This document shows positions 38,307 to 45,683 of a DNA stretch of 64,000 nt, one piece after another. Below the pieces are notes generated by a model. The model was not told the origin of the DNA, did not search any database, and saw nothing but the letters and a program-made list of their open reading frames with translations. The translations under genes were made by a program, and so were the position numbers. The stretch's first letter is position 1. Every line of letters starts with the position of its first letter. This stretch comes from Myxococcales bacterium (GTDB lineage Bacteria > Myxococcota > Myxococcia > Myxococcales > JAJYLH01), in the NCBI GenBank assembly GCA_021787845.1, contig JAJYLH010000006.1:1-64000 (forward strand), written 5' to 3'.

Positions 38307-38720
38307 TCATCCCGCAGCGCGAGTGATGAGCAGGTACGCCCAGTTCAGCCCCACCGCGACCAAGGCCGCGATGGCGGCGACCTGCTTCTCCCGTGCCGTC
38401 AGGACGAGCACCCAGGCCCGGCGCCAGACCGACAGCCGCAGCACGACGTAAACGGCAGCAGCAGCGGCGCCGAGGCAGAGCAGCGCTCCCAGTGGGCTCA
38501 CGTGCAAGGAGGCCCCGACCTCGCCGTGGGTCAAGGCGACGAAAGCACGGGTCATCCCGCAGGTCGGACAAGGAATTCCCGCGAGATGGCGCAACGGGCA
38601 CTCGACCAGCGGCAGTCGGTCGAACGGCCAGAACCGGCCCATCAAGAGGAGCACCGCCGACAGCCCGCCCAGGGCGATCGTCAGGTCGTGCGGTCGGGCA
38701 CGCTTTCGTTCGACGCGCAT
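38307..38720 (-). CDS. DUF2752 membrane protein
   Basis: 137 residues with three hydrophobic segments. The family signature CPLRHLAGIPCPTCGMTRAF lies at about 41-60, with its three cysteines. Function unknown; often found beside TM2 or Yip1-type proteins, and here it starts 4 nt after the Yip1-family gene stop. Likely an inner-membrane protein. Confidence 0.88.
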   Translation of the reverse strand: MRVERKRARPHDLTIALGGLSAVLLLMGRFWPFDRLPLVECPLRHLAGIPCPTCGMTRAFVALTHGEVGASLHVSPLGALLCLGAAAAAVYVVLRLSVWRRAWVLVLTAREKQVAAIAALVAVGLNWAYLLITRAAG

Positions 38721-38724
38721 CGGC

Positions 38725-39606
38725 TCAAAAGCCCATCGCGTGGGTCTTCATCGCGTGCGTCAGCCACAGGACGCCGACAATCGCCGGCGCGCCGACGCAG
38801 GTGACGAGGATCGTGATCTGCCAGCCGGCCACCGCCCACACCGCGTATTTCGTCGCGGTCTGGTGGGCGTGTCGGAGGCCCACGACCTGCAGGACCGACG
38901 CCCAGAGGAGCGCGACGAACATCCCGAACGAGGAGACGACGGCGAGGATGCCCGTCGAATAGGAGTAGGCGAAGGCCTTGAACGTCGCCGTCCATCCGTT
39001 CTTCGCCTGGCCGAAAGCCATGAGCACGAGATGAGCGATGCCGGCGAGCAGGAAGAGTTGGAGGTAGGTCCCGGCCACCGCGGAGACGAGCTCCTCCGCG
39101 AAGAGGGTCCGGCTGTCCATCGCCTGGACGAGCATCGTCACCGCGTGGACCGCGCGCGGATCGACCGGCAGGGAGCCCGCGGCGGAATGGAGGAGCGCGA
39201 GCATCGAGGCCAGGTCTTGGGCGAGGCTTGCGCTCAGCAAGCGTCCCAGGACCAAACCGAGGACCTGCGGCACCGCCACGACGAGGGAGAAATAGAGCAG
39301 CGCCCCGTCCGCCCGGTCGTAGCGCATCGAGCGGAAGAACTGCTCCGGCTCGAAGAGCGAACGCTTCAAGGTCTGGCCGAGCGCCCGAAAGAAGCCCAGC
39401 TCCCGGCGCCGCTCCCACGGGATCAGCCCTTCTGGAGCGCTTTCGCCAGGTGCTTGCGCCGCCGGATCCCCAGCGGGCAGAGCCGAGCTCTCGGCGGTCA
39501 AGACCGGCTCGCGAACCACCACTTCGACGCCGCAGCCAGGGCAGCGCTGGGGGCCGAAGTCGTCGACACGAAACGTCTGCCGGCAGGCGGAACACCGTGC
39601 AAGCAT
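38725..39606 (-). CDS. Zinc-ribbon Yip1-family membrane protein
   Basis: 293 residues. An N-terminal zinc ribbon has four Cys (5, 8, 22, 25; CSAC and CPGC). A Pro/Ala linker leads to a Yip1 domain with five hydrophobic segments and the typical FFRSM-x-YDRADGALLYF entry. Common in Myxococcota; thought to act in membrane organisation but untested. In one unit with the DUF2752 gene. Confidence 0.85.
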   Translation of the reverse strand: MLARCSACRQTFRVDDFGPQRCPGCGVEVVVREPVLTAESSALPAGDPAAQAPGESAPEGLIPWERRRELGFFRALGQTLKRSLFEPEQFFRSMRYDRADGALLYFSLVVAVPQVLGLVLGRLLSASLAQDLASMLALLHSAAGSLPVDPRAVHAVTMLVQAMDSRTLFAEELVSAVAGTYLQLFLLAGIAHLVLMAFGQAKNGWTATFKAFAYSYSTGILAVVSSFGMFVALLWASVLQVVGLRHAHQTATKYAVWAVAGWQITILVTCVGAPAIVGVLWLTHAMKTHAMGF

Positions 39607-39731: not shown

Positions 39732-40325
39732 ATGCCCGGCCGCGTCGCTTCGGCGGCGCTCCTTCTCGCGACGCTGGTCGCGCTCCCCGCGCGCGCGCGT
39801 GACGCGAGCGCGCGCACGACGCTGGAAGGCTTCGTCTGGAACACCTCGCCGGTGGCGTTGCAGACCGGGCTGGTGACCGGCGGCGGTGCCGAGATGCGGC
39901 GGCTCTTCGGCTCCCAGGGGCTCTTCTTCGGCGCCGAGCTGGCCCTCGGCCAGAGCGAGGAAGCGACGAACGACTGGGTGCTCGACGACCTGGACGGGCT
40001 CGCGAGCGTCGAGGTCGGTCTCGAGCGCACCTTCGGCGTCGGCACCTTGCGCGCCTCGTTCAGCCTCGGAACCCTCGCCGTGGAGCAGCTCGGACAGCGC
40101 GCGCAGTTCGATCGGCTGAAGGCGGCGGGCCTTCACGGCCTGACGCGCAACGCCGCAAGCATCGGCCCCTACGCCGCGGTCGACCTCGGCGCGGCGATCG
40201 CCTTTGCGGGCGCGTGGACGTTCTTCGTTCAGCTCGGTCCGGCGTTCACGGTGCAGAAAGTCGCCGGTCAGGAGCGCTCCCGGTGGCTCTTGACCAGCGG
40301 GCTCGGAGTCGGCCGTGGTTTTTAG
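39732..40325 (+). CDS. Predicted small outer-membrane beta-barrel protein
   Basis: 197 residues, signal peptide MPGRVASAALLLATLVALPA. The mature part alternates as amphipathic strands (ELALGQ, VEVGLERTFG, FFVQLGPAF) and ends in ...SGLGVGRGF with a terminal Phe, as for BAM substrates of about eight strands. No named family recognised. First gene of a four-gene overlapping envelope cluster; its end overlaps the next gene by 11 nt. Confidence 0.65.
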   Translation: MPGRVASAALLLATLVALPARARDASARTTLEGFVWNTSPVALQTGLVTGGGAEMRRLFGSQGLFFGAELALGQSEEATNDWVLDDLDGLASVEVGLERTFGVGTLRASFSLGTLAVEQLGQRAQFDRLKAAGLHGLTRNAASIGPYAAVDLGAAIAFAGAWTFFVQLGPAFTVQKVAGQERSRWLLTSGLGVGRGF

Positions 40326-41367
40326 GAGCGCTCTGGCCATCCTGGTGGCGGCGGCGCTCTCGGGCTGCGGGAGCGGTGTCGATGACCTCTCGCTCCCGCC
40401 GACGATTCTCGTCACCCTCCGCGGGCACGTCGACGTCACCCGAGTCCAGGCCGCGGCGGGCGGCCACCCGCTGAACGCGGCGCTCGTCTGGGGAGCCGAC
40501 CCGTCCCCCCTCTACCAGTTGTACGCGCTCTGCCTGAAGTACGCGTCGAACGCGGACTTGCAGCCCGCCTGCCCCGATCCGTTCGGTTTCGTCCCCAGCC
40601 AGATCGAGGCGACGACGCGGGTGAACGCCGACGGCTCGTTCGACCTGCCGCTGATCCACCTTCCCGACGCGAGGGTCTGCGTCGGGACCGCGCCGCCGCT
40701 CGTCGCGTGGGGGAGCCTGGTGGTCGCGGCGGACACCGACGGCAGCGGCACCTTCGACTTCTTCGCGCCCCGCAAGCAGGGCGAATACGGTCGCACGCCG
40801 CCCACCCTGGCCGACCGGGTCGTGGCCGCCTCGTTCTGGTCGTTGCAGAAGCCCGAGCAACGCGTCGGCTACCTCGAGGGCACCTGGAACGAAGCGATCC
40901 TCGGGCTCTTCTATCCGCTGCCCGGCTGCCCGACCCCGCGCGCCGGGTTCTCGGTCCTCACCGCGCCGGGGATGACCGTCGACGTCTCGCAGGGCAACCT
41001 CACACCGAAACCGCTGCCGGGCACCTGCACCGACGAGGTGGCGACCGAGACCGTCGAGGCGACGCCGCTATCCGGGCCGGACGGGAGGGCCTTCGCCTGC
41101 CGGCAGGTGCAGGACCGGCTGCGGGTCTCGCAGCCGCCGATGACCAGACCCGGAATCAATCCGGTCACCGGCAAGCCCGAGAAGAATTCGCCCGAGGCCA
41201 ACGACAAGCAGGCATGTCTCGACGCGACGACGCTCGCGCTGATCAGCCCCGGCGACTGCCCGACCGTGCAGCTCTATCCGCTGAAGGGGTGCGGCGACCA
41301 GCTCTCGTGCCAGACGCCTGAGTGGGACCTGACCAAGCACGTGCCGGTCTGGTGGCCATGTCACTGA
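40315..41367 (+). CDS. Hypothetical lipoprotein
   Basis: 350 residues from a GTG start inside the previous gene. Signal MVFRSALAILVAAALSGC with lipobox LSGC. The mature protein has scattered Cys (about ten) and segments such as LVVAADTDGSGTFDFFAPR that resemble a metal-binding or Ig-like loop. No family recognised. Translational coupling on both sides (11-nt and 10-nt overlaps) suggests it works with the two flanking outer-membrane proteins. Confidence 0.75.
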   Translation: MVFRSALAILVAAALSGCGSGVDDLSLPPTILVTLRGHVDVTRVQAAAGGHPLNAALVWGADPSPLYQLYALCLKYASNADLQPACPDPFGFVPSQIEATTRVNADGSFDLPLIHLPDARVCVGTAPPLVAWGSLVVAADTDGSGTFDFFAPRKQGEYGRTPPTLADRVVAASFWSLQKPEQRVGYLEGTWNEAILGLFYPLPGCPTPRAGFSVLTAPGMTVDVSQGNLTPKPLPGTCTDEVATETVEATPLSGPDGRAFACRQVQDRLRVSQPPMTRPGINPVTGKPEKNSPEANDKQACLDATTLALISPGDCPTVQLYPLKGCGDQLSCQTPEWDLTKHVPVWWPCH

Positions 41368-42233
41368 GGCGGCCGCTCGAGGTACGCGCCTTCGCCGGAG
41401 CCGGGAGGAGGCGTCCGCGCTCCGATTGGGTGGCTGGAACGCTGCTTTTTGGTTTCATCCTCGCCGCGCCGACGGTTCGGGCGGCACCGCTCGCGCCCGC
41501 CGGTTCCACGCCGGCCAAGACGAAGCCAGCGGCGAGCTCCGTCCCGCCGCCGAAAACGCCGCCGCCGAAAACGCGGGTCGAGACCGAACGCGACCTGGTC
41601 ACCGACGACCACTACGTCGTCCACCTCTCGATGCCGACCGAGAGCGATCGGAAGGCGTGGATGGAGCCCGGCCTCCGGGTGGACCTGGCCCTCGACGGCG
41701 GCCGGCTGTGGGGAAGGGCTACTGCCCCCCCGCTGACCACCATCGGCGCCCAGGTGCGCAGCCGCTACCGGTTGGACCGGCGCTGGTCGGTCTTCGCGGC
41801 GCTCCGCTACGCGGTGGTACGGGGAAGCTGGACCGGTGCCGCCTGGTCCGCCATCGTCGGGCCGCTCTTCCACCCCCTGCCGCAGATGGGGATTTCGCTC
41901 GGCGTCGGCTACGGCGGGCTCGACGTGCACCCGGCCAACGGAACCGGTTTCGCCCCACCCGGCAACACCGACTCGATCAGCCGCACCCTCGGCGACAACG
42001 AGACGATGTTCGCCTGCGCCGGCGGCGCCTGGGTCTCGCAGGCGAGCCTCGAGTACCTCGTGGTCGTCGGCCCGCTCTTCGAGACCGGCCCCTACCTGCG
42101 GGCCGACCTGCAGTGGACCGGGTGCGAGGAGACGTTCCAGAACACCGACCTGGAGACGGGCCTGCCGGCGGTCGGACGGCAATGGTGGCTCGATCGGGGC
42201 GCCGACGTCGGCTGGTGGTTCGCGTGGCGGTGA
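41358..42233 (+). CDS. Predicted outer-membrane protein
   Basis: 291 residues starting within the preceding gene. N-terminal signal-like helix (about 24-42) after a basic stretch, a Pro-rich linker (PPPKTPPPKT), then a chain of amphipathic strands: IGAQVRSRYRLDRRWSVFAA, MGISLGVGYGGL and so on, ending ...WFAWR. It looks like a small barrel with a periplasmic linker. No family recognised. It overlaps the receptor gene by 4 nt. Confidence 0.65.
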   Translation: MSLRRPLEVRAFAGAGRRRPRSDWVAGTLLFGFILAAPTVRAAPLAPAGSTPAKTKPAASSVPPPKTPPPKTRVETERDLVTDDHYVVHLSMPTESDRKAWMEPGLRVDLALDGGRLWGRATAPPLTTIGAQVRSRYRLDRRWSVFAALRYAVVRGSWTGAAWSAIVGPLFHPLPQMGISLGVGYGGLDVHPANGTGFAPPGNTDSISRTLGDNETMFACAGGAWVSQASLEYLVVVGPLFETGPYLRADLQWTGCEETFQNTDLETGLPAVGRQWWLDRGADVGWWFAWR

Positions 42234-45028
42234 CCCGACTCGCCCAGGCCGCCGCGCTGGCGGTCGCGGCCAGCCTGCTGCCCTTTCGGGTGGCGGCAGC
42301 GCAGCCGCAGGGCAATACCGCTCCCGTGGAATCCGCTCCGGCCTCGACGGCGACGCCCTCCCCGTCCGCGCCGGCGCCCGCGCTCCCGTCGGCCACGCCA
42401 CCAGCGCCAGCGAAGCCCGCCGCGAAACCGGCGTCCGCGCCCGCGGCCTCGCTGGTTCCTCCGTCGCCGCTGGGCTCGCTCCACATCCCGTACCCCAAGT
42501 CGGCGCCGCGACGCGCCTCGATGGTCACGGTGACGGTGCTCATCACCATCGGCGCCGACGGCCGCGTCTCGGCGGTCAAGCTCCTCAAGAAGGGTGGCGA
42601 GCCCTTCGACGCGGCGGTGGTCACGGGCGCGAAGAAGTTCCTCTTCCGGCCGGCGACGTTCGGCGGCCAAGCGGTCCCGGTCGCGGTGCCCTACTCGCAG
42701 ACCTTCGTTCCGCCCCCGCCACCGCCGCCGGGGGGGGCGAAAGGGCCGCCGCTCGACGCGCTGCTCGAAGGCCTGGTGATCGAGCGCGGAACGCGCGAGC
42801 CGGTCCAGAACGCGACGGTGGTGGTGCAAGACCCGCTCGGGATGCACGTCGCCGAGACCGACCAGCAGGGTCACTTCCTCTTGCCGCTGACGAGCGGGAA
42901 GAAGCTGGTGAAGATCGTGGCGGCCGATCACCGCGCTTTCCGGCGCACGGAAACGCTCGGGCACGAAGAGCACTTCCAGGTGAAGTACCTGGTCGACCGC
43001 GAGAGCTACAACCCGTACGAGTCGACGGTCGTCGGCGAGCGCGACCGGGAGACCATTTCCAAGACGACCCTGTCCGGCCGCGAAATCCACCAGCTTCCCG
43101 GCACCTTTGGCGACCCGTTCCGGGTGGTGGAAGAGCTGCCCGGCGTGACGAGCGTGATGTCGCTGCTGCCGCTGCCGATCGTGCGTGGCTCGTCGCCCGG
43201 CGACACCGGCATCTTCTTGGACGGCGTGCGGCTGCCGGCGCTGTTCCACCTCTTCGGAGGGCCCTCGGTCATCGCCCCGGAGCTCATCGACCGCATCGAC
43301 TTCTATCCCGGGGGCTTTCCGGTCAGCTACGGCGGGTACGTCGGCGGCATCATCGACGGCCGCACCGAGCGGCCCGACGATGGTCGCAGCAAGCTCGACC
43401 TCGACCTGAACCTCTTGCAGTCCGGTCTCTACGCGCAGCACCCGATTCCCGGAACCTCGATGGTGCTGACGGTCGCCGGGCGCTACGGCTATCCTGGATT
43501 GCTCCTGTCCCTCCTGACCACGGGCTTGTCCCTCGGCTACTGGGACTATCAGGCACGCCTGACAGGAGGGCACCCGGGCAGCGAGTGGTCGGTTTTCGCC
43601 TACGGCTCGGAGGATGTGCTGGCGGAGTCGCTGCCGCCGAGCACGAGCTCGACCTCCACCAGCGGTTCGACGACCGGCTCCGGCTCGACCCCGGCCAGCG
43701 GCACCGCGAAGAGCGCGAGCTCGGCCACGACCATGACCACGCTCATGAAGACGGAATTCCACCGCCTCGATCTGACCTGGAAGCTGGGCGGCGAGGACAA
43801 GTACGGTCTCTACCGCTTCGTCGCCGGCTACGACGACAGCGGCGGCGTCGGGGTCGACTTGAGCTCGGCGATGGTCGATCCGCAGGCGTCGTGGATGCTG
43901 CCTCTGTCGAAGACGCTGCGCGTGCATGCCGGCGCCGAGCTGCTCCTGCAATACGACCTCACCGGCTCCAGCACCTCGAGCGGCACCCAGACGGCGAGCT
44001 ATTTGTCAACGGTCTTCCCCGCCTCGGGCGCGCTCGCCAACGGCGGCGCGTACGTCGAGGCGCCGTGGAAGCCGAATGGGAACCTGCTCGTCACGCCGGG
44101 CGTGCGCGTCGACGGCTACACCGACAACGAGACGACCAACGACAGCGCGGGGAGCGCTCACGCGGGCCTTGGGCTGCCGGCCGGGTCGGGCTCGAGCACC
44201 AAACGCGTCTGGCAGTGGAGCGTCGACCCGCGGGTGAGCGCGCGCTGGCGGCCGCCGGGTTGGAAGAAGGTATGGCTGAAGGGCGTCGTCGGCCGCTACC
44301 ACCAGCCGCCGCGGTTCTTCATCCCCATCCCTGGAGAGTCAGAGGCACCGCTCTCGGGGGGCTTGCTCGCCTCGACCCAGTACTCGGTGGGCACCGAGGC
44401 GAGCCTGGCACCGGGCGTCGACCTCGACGTGCAGACCTACTACAACGACATGGACCCGGTCCTCTTCGACCTGAGCACGAACTCGTCGATGGCCGACATC
44501 CTCACGGTCGCGCCGACGACGCTGCCGGGCGGAACGGCCTCTGGCAATTCGTCGTCCTCGAACCCGCTCGCGGCGCTCCAGCAGAAGACGACCGGGCGCG
44601 CCTATGGTCTGGAAATCCTCCTGCGCAAGCGGGACACGTCGAGCCTGTTCGGATGGATCGCCTACACGCTCTCACGCAGCGAGCGGCACTACGCCACCGG
44701 CTGGGCGCCGTACGACTTCGACCGCACGCACATCCTGAACGCGGTGGCGGGGATACGGCTGCCACGCAACTGGGAATTCGGCGCGCGCCTGCTCCTCGAG
44801 AGCGGTACCCCTGTCACCACGACCTACGGCCGCTACAACAGCGCTCGGACGCCCTGGGATTACGAAATCGACCTGCGCATCGACAAGCGGGCGGTGTGGA
44901 ACACCTGGCTGCTCGACTTCTACGTCGACATCCTCAACGCCAGCGTCGCCCCGCAGACCGGCGGCCTCACCGAGGGCGAGCCGGTCCGCTACGTCCTGCC
45001 GACGATCGGGTTCCGCGCGCTGTTGTGA
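42230..45028 (+). CDS. TonB-dependent receptor fused to a TonB C-terminal domain
   Basis: 932 residues. Order: signal peptide (1-25), Pro/Ala-rich linker (about 26-80), a TonB C-terminal domain (about 85-165; YPKSAPRRASMVTVTVLITI and FRPATFGGQAVPV), a poly-Pro hinge, a carboxypeptidase-regulatory-like domain (about 180-255), the plug (VVGERDRETISKTTLSGREI, ELPGVTSV, FPGGFPVSYGG) and a C-terminal barrel ending ...VLPTIGFRALL. The energy-transducer domain normally belongs to a separate inner-membrane protein. Such fusions are, as I recall, seen in myxobacteria. Overlapping GTGA start; last gene of the cluster. Confidence 0.85.
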   Translation: MTRLAQAAALAVAASLLPFRVAAAQPQGNTAPVESAPASTATPSPSAPAPALPSATPPAPAKPAAKPASAPAASLVPPSPLGSLHIPYPKSAPRRASMVTVTVLITIGADGRVSAVKLLKKGGEPFDAAVVTGAKKFLFRPATFGGQAVPVAVPYSQTFVPPPPPPPGGAKGPPLDALLEGLVIERGTREPVQNATVVVQDPLGMHVAETDQQGHFLLPLTSGKKLVKIVAADHRAFRRTETLGHEEHFQVKYLVDRESYNPYESTVVGERDRETISKTTLSGREIHQLPGTFGDPFRVVEELPGVTSVMSLLPLPIVRGSSPGDTGIFLDGVRLPALFHLFGGPSVIAPELIDRIDFYPGGFPVSYGGYVGGIIDGRTERPDDGRSKLDLDLNLLQSGLYAQHPIPGTSMVLTVAGRYGYPGLLLSLLTTGLSLGYWDYQARLTGGHPGSEWSVFAYGSEDVLAESLPPSTSSTSTSGSTTGSGSTPASGTAKSASSATTMTTLMKTEFHRLDLTWKLGGEDKYGLYRFVAGYDDSGGVGVDLSSAMVDPQASWMLPLSKTLRVHAGAELLLQYDLTGSSTSSGTQTASYLSTVFPASGALANGGAYVEAPWKPNGNLLVTPGVRVDGYTDNETTNDSAGSAHAGLGLPAGSGSSTKRVWQWSVDPRVSARWRPPGWKKVWLKGVVGRYHQPPRFFIPIPGESEAPLSGGLLASTQYSVGTEASLAPGVDLDVQTYYNDMDPVLFDLSTNSSMADILTVAPTTLPGGTASGNSSSSNPLAALQQKTTGRAYGLEILLRKRDTSSLFGWIAYTLSRSERHYATGWAPYDFDRTHILNAVAGIRLPRNWEFGARLLLESGTPVTTTYGRYNSARTPWDYEIDLRIDKRAVWNTWLLDFYVDILNASVAPQTGGLTEGEPVRYVLPTIGFRALL

Positions 45029-45086
45029 GCGAAGCCTCGGCGGTGGGCCGACCGTGGCGGTACTATGCTTTTCCAGGGAGGTCCGG

Positions 45087-45683
45087 GTGCAGCCGCAATC
45101 GCAGGGGATCGAGCCGGAATCGCAGGAGATCGAGCGCTTGACGTGGCCGATCAAGCTGACGTGGGAGGACTACGTCGAGCTGCCGGAGGACGGGCGGCGC
45201 TACGAAATCATCGATGGGGAACTCTACGTGTCGCCTTCACCACGACCTCTACATCAGCGCGTCCTTTTTCGGTTGGCCGAGCAGCTTCGGGCCGGGCTCG
45301 ACGCACGCGGCTTGGGCGAGACGTTCATCGCTCCGCTCGACGTGCTCTTCGGTGTCCACGACATCATGCAGCCGGACATCCTCTTTGTGCGCCGCGACCG
45401 GCTGAACATCGTGGACGAAGAGAACGTCAAGGGCATCCCAGACCTGGTGGTCGAGATCATCTCGCCGAAGAAGCGTCGTCGCGACGCGGTCGTGAAGGCG
45501 AGAGCCTATGCGCGGCTTGGTGTGCCGGTGTTCTGGCTCGTCGACCCCGAGCTCGAGCGGCTCGAAGTCAGCCTGCTGGTCGACGGCCGGTTCGATCAGG
45601 CCATTGTGCGCCGGCGACCGGAGTCGTACGAGCCGCGCGAGTTCCCCGGGCTCGTCGTCGACCTGGAGAAGCTCTTCGCCTAG
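45087..45683 (+). CDS. Uma2 family endonuclease-fold protein
   Basis: 198 residues from a GTG with GGGAGG upstream, preferred to GTG at 45054. Uma2/DUF820 features: TWEDYVELPEDGRRYEIIDG, QPDILFVRRDRL, then PDLVVEIISPKKRRRD with the PD-(D/E)xK-type Asp, Glu and Lys, and the ending PGLVVDLEKLF. Function unknown; restriction-like nuclease fold. Often present in many copies in Cyanobacteria and Myxococcota. Confidence 0.9.
   Translation: MQPQSQGIEPESQEIERLTWPIKLTWEDYVELPEDGRRYEIIDGELYVSPSPRPLHQRVLFRLAEQLRAGLDARGLGETFIAPLDVLFGVHDIMQPDILFVRRDRLNIVDEENVKGIPDLVVEIISPKKRRRDAVVKARAYARLGVPVFWLVDPELERLEVSLLVDGRFDQAIVRRRPESYEPREFPGLVVDLEKLFA

What the first reader, a model, noticed from the sequence alone, without database searches (positions are those of the whole stretch)
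39732..45028. Four-gene translationally coupled outer-membrane cluster of unknown function
A small barrel, a lipoprotein, a second outer-membrane protein and the TonB/receptor fusion overlap by 11, 10 and 4 nt. None of the first three belongs to a family I recognise. The arrangement suggests one envelope complex, for example an importer of a large or complexed ligand with accessory surface lipoprotein and barrels.
Basis: inference. Interest (0 to 1): 0.55.

Follow-up and report, generated by a model that had tools for sequence, protein, structure and literature searches.

The report
Conserved TonB outer-membrane transporter operon
Four overlapping genes encode what looks like one nutrient-gate complex in the outer membrane of myxobacteria-like bacteria, and two of them are relatives of genes that elsewhere sit beside a caspase-like protease and a stress-gene switch.

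Summary
In detail: A (39732-40325), B (40315-41367), C (41358-42233) and D (42230-45028) overlap by 11, 10 and 4 nt. A, B and C match no Pfam or NCBIfam family. C models confidently as an 8-stranded OmpA/OmpW-like barrel; B is a lipoprotein; D is a TonB_C + Plug TonB-dependent transporter.

The set is a conserved unit. Among 36 D-orthologue loci, C lies next to D in 33 of 33 testable, B in 28 of 32, A in 27 of 31. Overlaps are conserved; 19 of 34 loci carry Ton motor genes directly after D. None of 53 D-paralogue loci has A, B or C.

The surprise lies outside the window. A and B are diverged members of a module found in 11 of 11 examined loci without C and D: ECF sigma, membrane anti-sigma, exported caspase with a barrel tail (homologous to A in six), lipoprotein B. 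A tree splits the B family cleanly in two.

Best reading: a Ton-driven importer (C-D core) sharing an A-B outer-membrane module with a caspase signalling operon. Substrate unknown; direction inferred. TonB-fused receptors themselves are common in this phylum.

The parts
39732..40325 (+). Gene A: exported 197-aa protein, predicted small outer-membrane barrel; homologous to the C-terminal barrel of caspase-barrel proteins
   Evidence: profile match to caspase C-terminal barrels, probability 98.8%, E 5e-17; no Pfam or NCBIfam family. No structure was predicted for A
40315..41367 (+). Gene B: lipoprotein (lipobox LSGC), 350 aa, TTR/CnaB/C2-like beta-sandwich (weak fold match) plus cysteine-rich C-terminal part ending in PxWWPC
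   Evidence: overlaps A by 11 nt
41358..42233 (+). Gene C: 8-stranded OmpA/OmpW/NspA-type barrel, always next to D
   Evidence: present in 33 of 33 testable loci; overlaps B by 10 nt
42230..45028 (+). Gene D: signal peptide, Pro/Ala linker, TonB_C, CarboxypepD_reg-like, Plug, TonB-dependent receptor barrel
   Evidence: Pfam TonB_C 86-153, CarbopepD_reg_2 180-256 (below its cut-off), Plug 277-373; TonB_C and Plug in 22 of 22 orthologues scanned; overlaps C by 4 nt
43007..43057 (+). Putative TonB box region of D (residues 260-276 of P0004)
   Evidence: pattern found in 19 of 22 D orthologues; the reading as a TonB box is recalled, not tested

Best explanation
The four genes make one outer-membrane unit built on a TonB-dependent transporter. 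Shown by sequence or model: D carries a periplasmic TonB_C domain, a CarboxypepD_reg-like domain and a Plug. C is an 8-stranded barrel that always accompanies D. B is a lipoprotein, and A is homologous to barrel domains that are fused to caspases elsewhere. Inferred: D is the gated pore. An ExbB-ExbD-TonB motor (next door in most relatives, on another contig in this genome) pulls on its TonB box. C docks against D in the membrane. B, with its beta-sandwich, calcium-type loop and many conserved cysteines, together with barrel A, forms a recognition or delivery module that brings a ligand to D, which is taken up in a Ton-dependent way. The N-terminal TonB_C of D probably helps dock or gate the Ton machinery. 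The A-B module is shared, by common descent, with an ECF sigma/anti-sigma/caspase operon, so its basic job is probably sensing or binding something at the outer membrane, with transport as the output in one case and signalling in the other.
For: Conserved order A-B-C-D: C in 33 of 33, B in 28 of 32 and A in 27 of 31 testable loci out of 36 (A in L110 is borderline). A, B and C are absent from all 53 D-paralogue loci. The overlaps are conserved. ExbB follows D directly in 19 of 34 testable loci, usually with ExbD and TonB; it is divergent in L012, and L029 has a TonB-type match only, overlapping the end of D. Pfam confirms ExbB, ExbD and TonB in L024 and L012. TonB_C and Plug are in 22 of 22 D proteins scanned. 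C model: eight strands, block pLDDT mostly 90-98 over the barrel, Z 18.3 over 154 residues at 3.4 A for the best row, with NspA, OmpA and OmpW tied near 17-18. All 21 B proteins have a lipoprotein-type cysteine near the start and none has Lys at +2, the mark of inner-membrane lipoproteins in M. xanthus (PMC3222651, abstract and passages). This genome has an ExbB-ExbD-TonB set on contig C118. A is homologous to the caspase barrel. The B tree shows two clean groups.
Against: No substrate, ABC transporter, periplasmic binding protein or metabolic gene was found to recur beside the cluster. The window and 12 other testable loci lack an adjacent Ton motor. A and B are absent in L025, L034 and L105. 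No physical interaction was modelled. Import is assumed from the family; Oar shows that a transporter of this superfamily can be required for secretion.
Confidence: 0.55

Rival explanations
1. The complex exports or displays something: D works like Oar, a Ton-driven secretion gate, and B (and perhaps A) is its cargo or surface-displayed product.
For: Oar of M. xanthus, with CarboxypepD_reg plus Plug, is required with a Ton system for PopC secretion (PMC6434023, passages). No uptake partner recurs near the cluster. In L105 and L034/L106 the C-D pair lies behind genes that by eye look like TadE/TadG pilus genes.
Against: D carries TonB_C, which is not among the domains named in the Oar study's N-terminal survey. 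No recurring secreted protease or other cargo gene was found. B also exists without D, so it does not need D to reach its place.
Confidence: 0.2
2. The unit is primarily a sensor: A and B detect an envelope or surface signal, and D with its periplasmic TonB_C domain passes it on, as STN-type receptors do.
For: The sister A-B module sits in an ECF sigma/anti-sigma/caspase operon in 11 of 11 loci examined. A histidine kinase and a sigma-54 regulator follow the cluster in L014, and a homologue of the regulator is near L015.
Against: None of the 36 D-orthologue loci has the caspase or anti-sigma gene; sigma-like matches occur only in L023 and L030, at E 3e-6 and 7e-6. No STN domain is reported for D.
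Confidence: 0.2
3. Four unrelated outer-membrane genes that merely share a promoter.
For: A and B can be missing, and A-B also exist elsewhere without C-D.
Against: Strict order and overlaps over many families; 0 of 53 paralogue loci carry A, B or C.
Confidence: 0.05

Closest known systems
MxcH (myxochelin receptor, NCBIfam NF038079) and other TonB_C-fused TonB-dependent receptors of Myxococcota
   Same: N-terminal TonB_C domain joined to a TonB-dependent receptor; D matches the start of the MxcH model (E 1.5e-12, residues 78-170). 15 of 16 paralogues scanned also carry TonB_C
   Different: D scores 46.5 bits against a cut-off of 925, and only over the TonB part; no paralogue locus has A, B or C
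Oar/PopC system of Myxococcus xanthus (PMC6434023)
   Same: Myxobacterial TonB-dependent transporter with CarboxypepD_reg plus Plug and a dedicated Ton system
   Different: Oar's N-terminal extension is CarboxypepD_reg, with no TonB_C named in the passages read; the C/B/A partners are specific to the cluster studied here
SusCD and BtuB-BtuG (transporter plus surface lipoprotein; BtuG paper PMC10404256 seen in a search listing only)
   Same: TonB-dependent transporter encoded with an outer-membrane lipoprotein
   Different: B has no Pfam match at all and models as a beta-sandwich with a cysteine-rich tail; two extra small barrels; different phylum
ECF sigma / anti-sigma / caspase-barrel / lipoprotein operon of Myxococcota (found here, no name known to me)
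   Same: B is homologous, with a shared PxxWWPC tail in nearly all members; A is homologous to the caspase C-terminal barrel
   Different: That operon has no C or D; the A gene studied here has no caspase domain and no sigma or anti-sigma neighbours

Membership tests
TonB-dependent transporter (gene D) | Plug domain | tested here: met
   PF07715 E 5.1e-6, 27.4 bits against a cut-off of 23.9; 22 of 22 orthologues
TonB-dependent transporter (gene D) | 22-stranded receptor barrel (PF00593) | tested here: inconclusive
   Matched in 11 of 22 orthologues, but not in the window's own D; no structure predicted for D
TonB-dependent transporter (gene D) | TonB box and dependence on ExbB/ExbD/TonB | tested here: inconclusive
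   Conserved YxPYExxVxGE-like stretch in 19 of 22; Ton genes adjacent in most relatives, on another contig here; dependence needs an experiment
MxcH myxochelin receptor | Score over the NCBIfam cut-off along the whole protein | tested here: not met
   46.5 against 925 bits, residues 78-170 only
SusCD glycan importer | SusD-family lipoprotein partner | tested here: not met
   B has no Pfam family up to E 1 and is mostly strands, not helices
BtuB-BtuG | Beta-propeller lipoprotein lid | tested here: inconclusive
   B's best structural rows are weak (Z up to 5.6) and of sandwich type; the propeller feature of BtuG is recalled
OmpA/OmpW-type small barrels (gene C) | 8-stranded transmembrane barrel | tested here: met
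   Eight strands 105-290; Z 16-18 to NspA, OmpA, OmpW and OprF
OmpA/OmpW-type small barrels (gene C) | Sequence membership in a Pfam barrel family | tested here: not met
   Only two irrelevant weak matches below cut-off
ECF sigma / caspase-barrel operon | B-family lipoprotein and A-type barrel | tested here: met
   B profile E 1e-14 to 1e-39; A against caspase barrels 98.8%, E 5e-17
ECF sigma / caspase-barrel operon | Caspase domain, ECF sigma and anti-sigma gene present | tested here: not met
   None near the window's A-B, and no caspase or anti-sigma match in any of the 36 D loci

The most novel reading that the evidence does not exclude
A and B form a general outer-membrane recognition module of Myxococcota that has been wired to two different outputs. 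One is a Ton-driven transporter (C-D, this window). The other is a proteolytic signalling line in which an exported, outer-membrane-anchored caspase cuts a membrane anti-sigma factor and frees an ECF sigma factor. That would be a caspase acting as the site-1 protease of a bacterial envelope signal.
Probability: 0.25. Interest if true: 0.8.

Novelty: new variant of a known kind. Interest (0 to 1): 0.5.

Why it matters
It defines a conserved Ton-linked outer-membrane complex with three unnamed protein families, found across many Myxococcota families mainly from metagenomes. It also exposes a link that could not be seen from this window: the lipoprotein and small barrel belong to the same families as the partners of an exported caspase encoded with an ECF sigma factor and its putative anti-sigma. 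That operon occurs in single-contig genomes of the family that holds the largest Myxococcales genomes here (f4, by size Myxococcus-like), so both the shared module and the idea of a caspase-driven envelope signal could be tested with gene deletions in laboratory myxobacteria.

Tried and rejected
Pfam on neighbours of the D loci for a substrate clue: glutathione synthetase, methyltransferase, lamin-tail protein, vault protein, regulators and a multihaem cytochrome in L012 only; nothing recurs across lineages, so no substrate is proposed. Clustering of neighbours over 29 loci gave only the Ton genes and lineage-specific neighbours. Sequence search of B and C profiles against solved structures: nothing useful. 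D against solved structures: only TonB C-terminal domains. Fold search with B: no Foldseek match at E 0.001 or better. In the second look the best rows are a biofilm protein domain, a pilotin, Cna_B-type pilins, C2 domains and transthyretin (Z 5.6 and below), so 'TTR/CnaB-like' is a weak statement; no SusD or propeller row was listed, which excludes nothing. A and C are not related to each other by profile. A against the Myxococcaceae caspase tails alone was not significant; the link runs through the six other caspase tails. Literature searches found no description of this cluster or of a caspase-barrel/ECF operon; on caspase homologues and barrels listed no obvious match among the 12 of 80 papers shown; some searches gave the domain survey of 34,893 receptors with five N-terminal architectures, built on CarboxypepD_reg, STN and AMIN, TonB_C not being among the domains it used. 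The library holds open-licence papers only.

Limits: gene starts in orthologues were chosen by rule (nearest start to the upstream stop, ATG preferred). Gene-family presence was scored with my own HMMs built partly from the same loci. The genome-contig scan kept 80 of 113 confirmed places and used only two peptide patterns, so it is a lower bound. In the phylum searches only the first 7 to 15 candidates per genome were scored. One search's list is broad: a caspase match occurs in 153 of 195 genomes at E 1e-60 or better, and only loci of the top group were linked to B. For Pfam on paralogues I gave 16 of 53 loci.

Full report
Observation. A is exported, B starts with a lipoprotein signal (LSGC), C is exported, and D has a signal peptide and a Pro/Ala-rich linker (read by eye). 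Pfam finds TonB_C (86-153), a weak CarboxypepD_reg-like domain and Plug in D, and nothing above cut-off in A, B or C. NCBIfam adds that D's TonB part resembles the start of MxcH.

Conservation. A search of 60 genomes with B hit 4, the window's own (G000), G001, G002 and G004. The corresponding loci carry A-B-C-D in the same order (L007, L008) or B-C-D at a contig edge (L009). A scan of 84,980 species genomes with the D profile kept 80 places. L010-L036 (27 loci) match at 39-51% identity; L037-L089 (53 loci) at 34% or less. In a phylum search, C profiles hit 13 of 195 genomes. Merging the window, L008, L010-L036, L105 and L107-L112 gives 36 D-orthologue loci. L007, L009, L106 and L113 were dropped as duplicates of L010, L011, L034 and L025. 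C is present in 33 of 33 where D is not at a contig edge (L013, L020 and L031 not testable). B is present in 28 of 32 (absent from L025, L034, L105 and L110; L036 also not testable). A is present in 27 of 31 (absent from L025, L034 and L105, borderline in L110; L011 and L036 not testable). None of the 53 paralogue loci carries A, B or C. The overlaps at the three junctions are conserved.

Ton motor. In 19 of 34 testable loci an ExbB gene follows D, and ExbD and TonB follow where the contig goes on. L012 has the trio divergently upstream, and L029 has a TonB-type match only, in an ORF overlapping the end of D. 13 loci, the window's among them, lack it nearby; L016 and L033 are not testable. Pfam confirms ExbB, ExbD and TonB in L024 and L012. 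In the window's genome an ExbB-ExbD-TonB set lies on another contig.

Anatomy. C: AlphaFold2 with 22 sequences gives eight strands between 105 and 290, and the structural second look ranks NspA, OmpA, OmpW and a Legionella porin together at Z 17-18. B: AlphaFold2 with 21 sequences (mean pLDDT 87.5, pTM 0.83) gives a beta-rich fold. Weak rows point to a transthyretin/Cna_B/C2 sandwich over residues 31-257 (Z up to 5.6), and the C-terminal part is barely tested. B proteins hold 11-14 cysteines. A DxNxNG-type loop (calcium-type, recalled) was found by my pattern in 20 of 21, and a C-terminal WW motif, mostly WWPC, is conserved. D: TonB_C and Plug in 22 of 22, CarboxypepD_reg in 18, receptor barrel in 11. 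TonB_C fused to a receptor is not special to this cluster: 15 of 16 paralogues scanned have it.

A second life of A and B. Profile searches of 195 genomes found B in 25 and A in 13, some without C. I fetched 11 such loci (L166-L176). In 11 of 11, B lies beside an exported protein with a caspase domain, and an ECF sigma factor and a one-helix membrane protein are encoded nearby. Pfam gives the caspase domain PF00656 in the five of these proteins scanned and sigma-70 domains in the two scanned. The membrane protein resembles a putative anti-sigma-E model at E 2.4e-4 in the one scanned with NCBIfam. The caspase His and Cys are invariant in 10 of 10, and the N-termini read as Sec signal peptides (by eye). 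The tails of six of these caspase proteins align with A over 165 columns (98.8%, E 5e-17). The four Myxococcaceae tails link through them (93.4%, E 2.5e-7) but not directly to A. No caspase or anti-sigma match occurs near any of the 36 D loci; sigma matches are weak and only in L023 and L030. A 38-row tree of B proteins separates transporter-linked and caspase-linked members by one branch (support 100/98); some rows are long. One genome, G192, holds both systems (L111, L170).

Mechanism. Shown: gene order, overlaps, domains, C's barrel model, B's lipoprotein signal, and the A/B kinship with the caspase operon. Inferred: one complex; D as Ton-driven pore; C as its obligate membrane partner; A-B as a recognition module; import as direction. 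In M. xanthus inner-membrane lipoproteins tend to have Lys at +2 and matrix ones Ala at +7 (PMC3222651, abstract and passages); none of 21 B proteins has Lys at +2, which fits the outer membrane but does not say which face. Oar shows that export is possible for this superfamily (PMC6434023). I put one functional unit at about 0.85, import at about 0.6 and the recognition role of A-B at about 0.45; about 0.55 for the reading as a whole.

Known or new. The transporter kind is known; the partner families and their strict linkage appear undescribed in the searches made. I call it a new variant of a known kind. The stronger novelty, a caspase-based envelope signal sharing the same outer-membrane module, rests on gene neighbourhood and homology alone.

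Noticed in passing
L166-L176 (e.g. L172:8489-12675, L174:4627-9954): Operon of ECF sigma factor, putative membrane anti-sigma, exported caspase with a C-terminal tail (barrel-like, homologous to A in six), and B-type lipoprotein, in several Myxococcota families including single-contig genomes
   Followed up: partly
L037-L089: TonB_C fused to the N-terminus of TonB-dependent receptors is common in Myxococcota (15 of 16 scanned)
   Followed up: partly
L012:3811-7568: Divergent ExbB-ExbD-TonB genes run into a cytochrome gene with eight CXXCH motifs, beside the A-D cluster
   Followed up: no
L105 and L106 (= L034 region): C-D pair without A-B, behind genes that by eye look like TadE/TadG pilus genes
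   Followed up: no
L110:7933-11011: Reduced version: A-like, C, and a D of about 650 aa that seems to lack the TonB_C domain; no B
   Followed up: partly
L031:4090-6555: Major vault protein-like gene (MVP shoulder domain) downstream of the Ton genes in a Myxococcota MAG
   Followed up: no
L207:6550-8872 (window genome, contig C118): ExbB-ExbD-TonB set of the window's own genome, not near the cluster
   Followed up: partly
window 38307-39606 and 45054-45683: Flanking genes are ordinary: DUF2752 and Yip1 proteins on the minus strand, a Uma2-family gene downstream
   Followed up: yes
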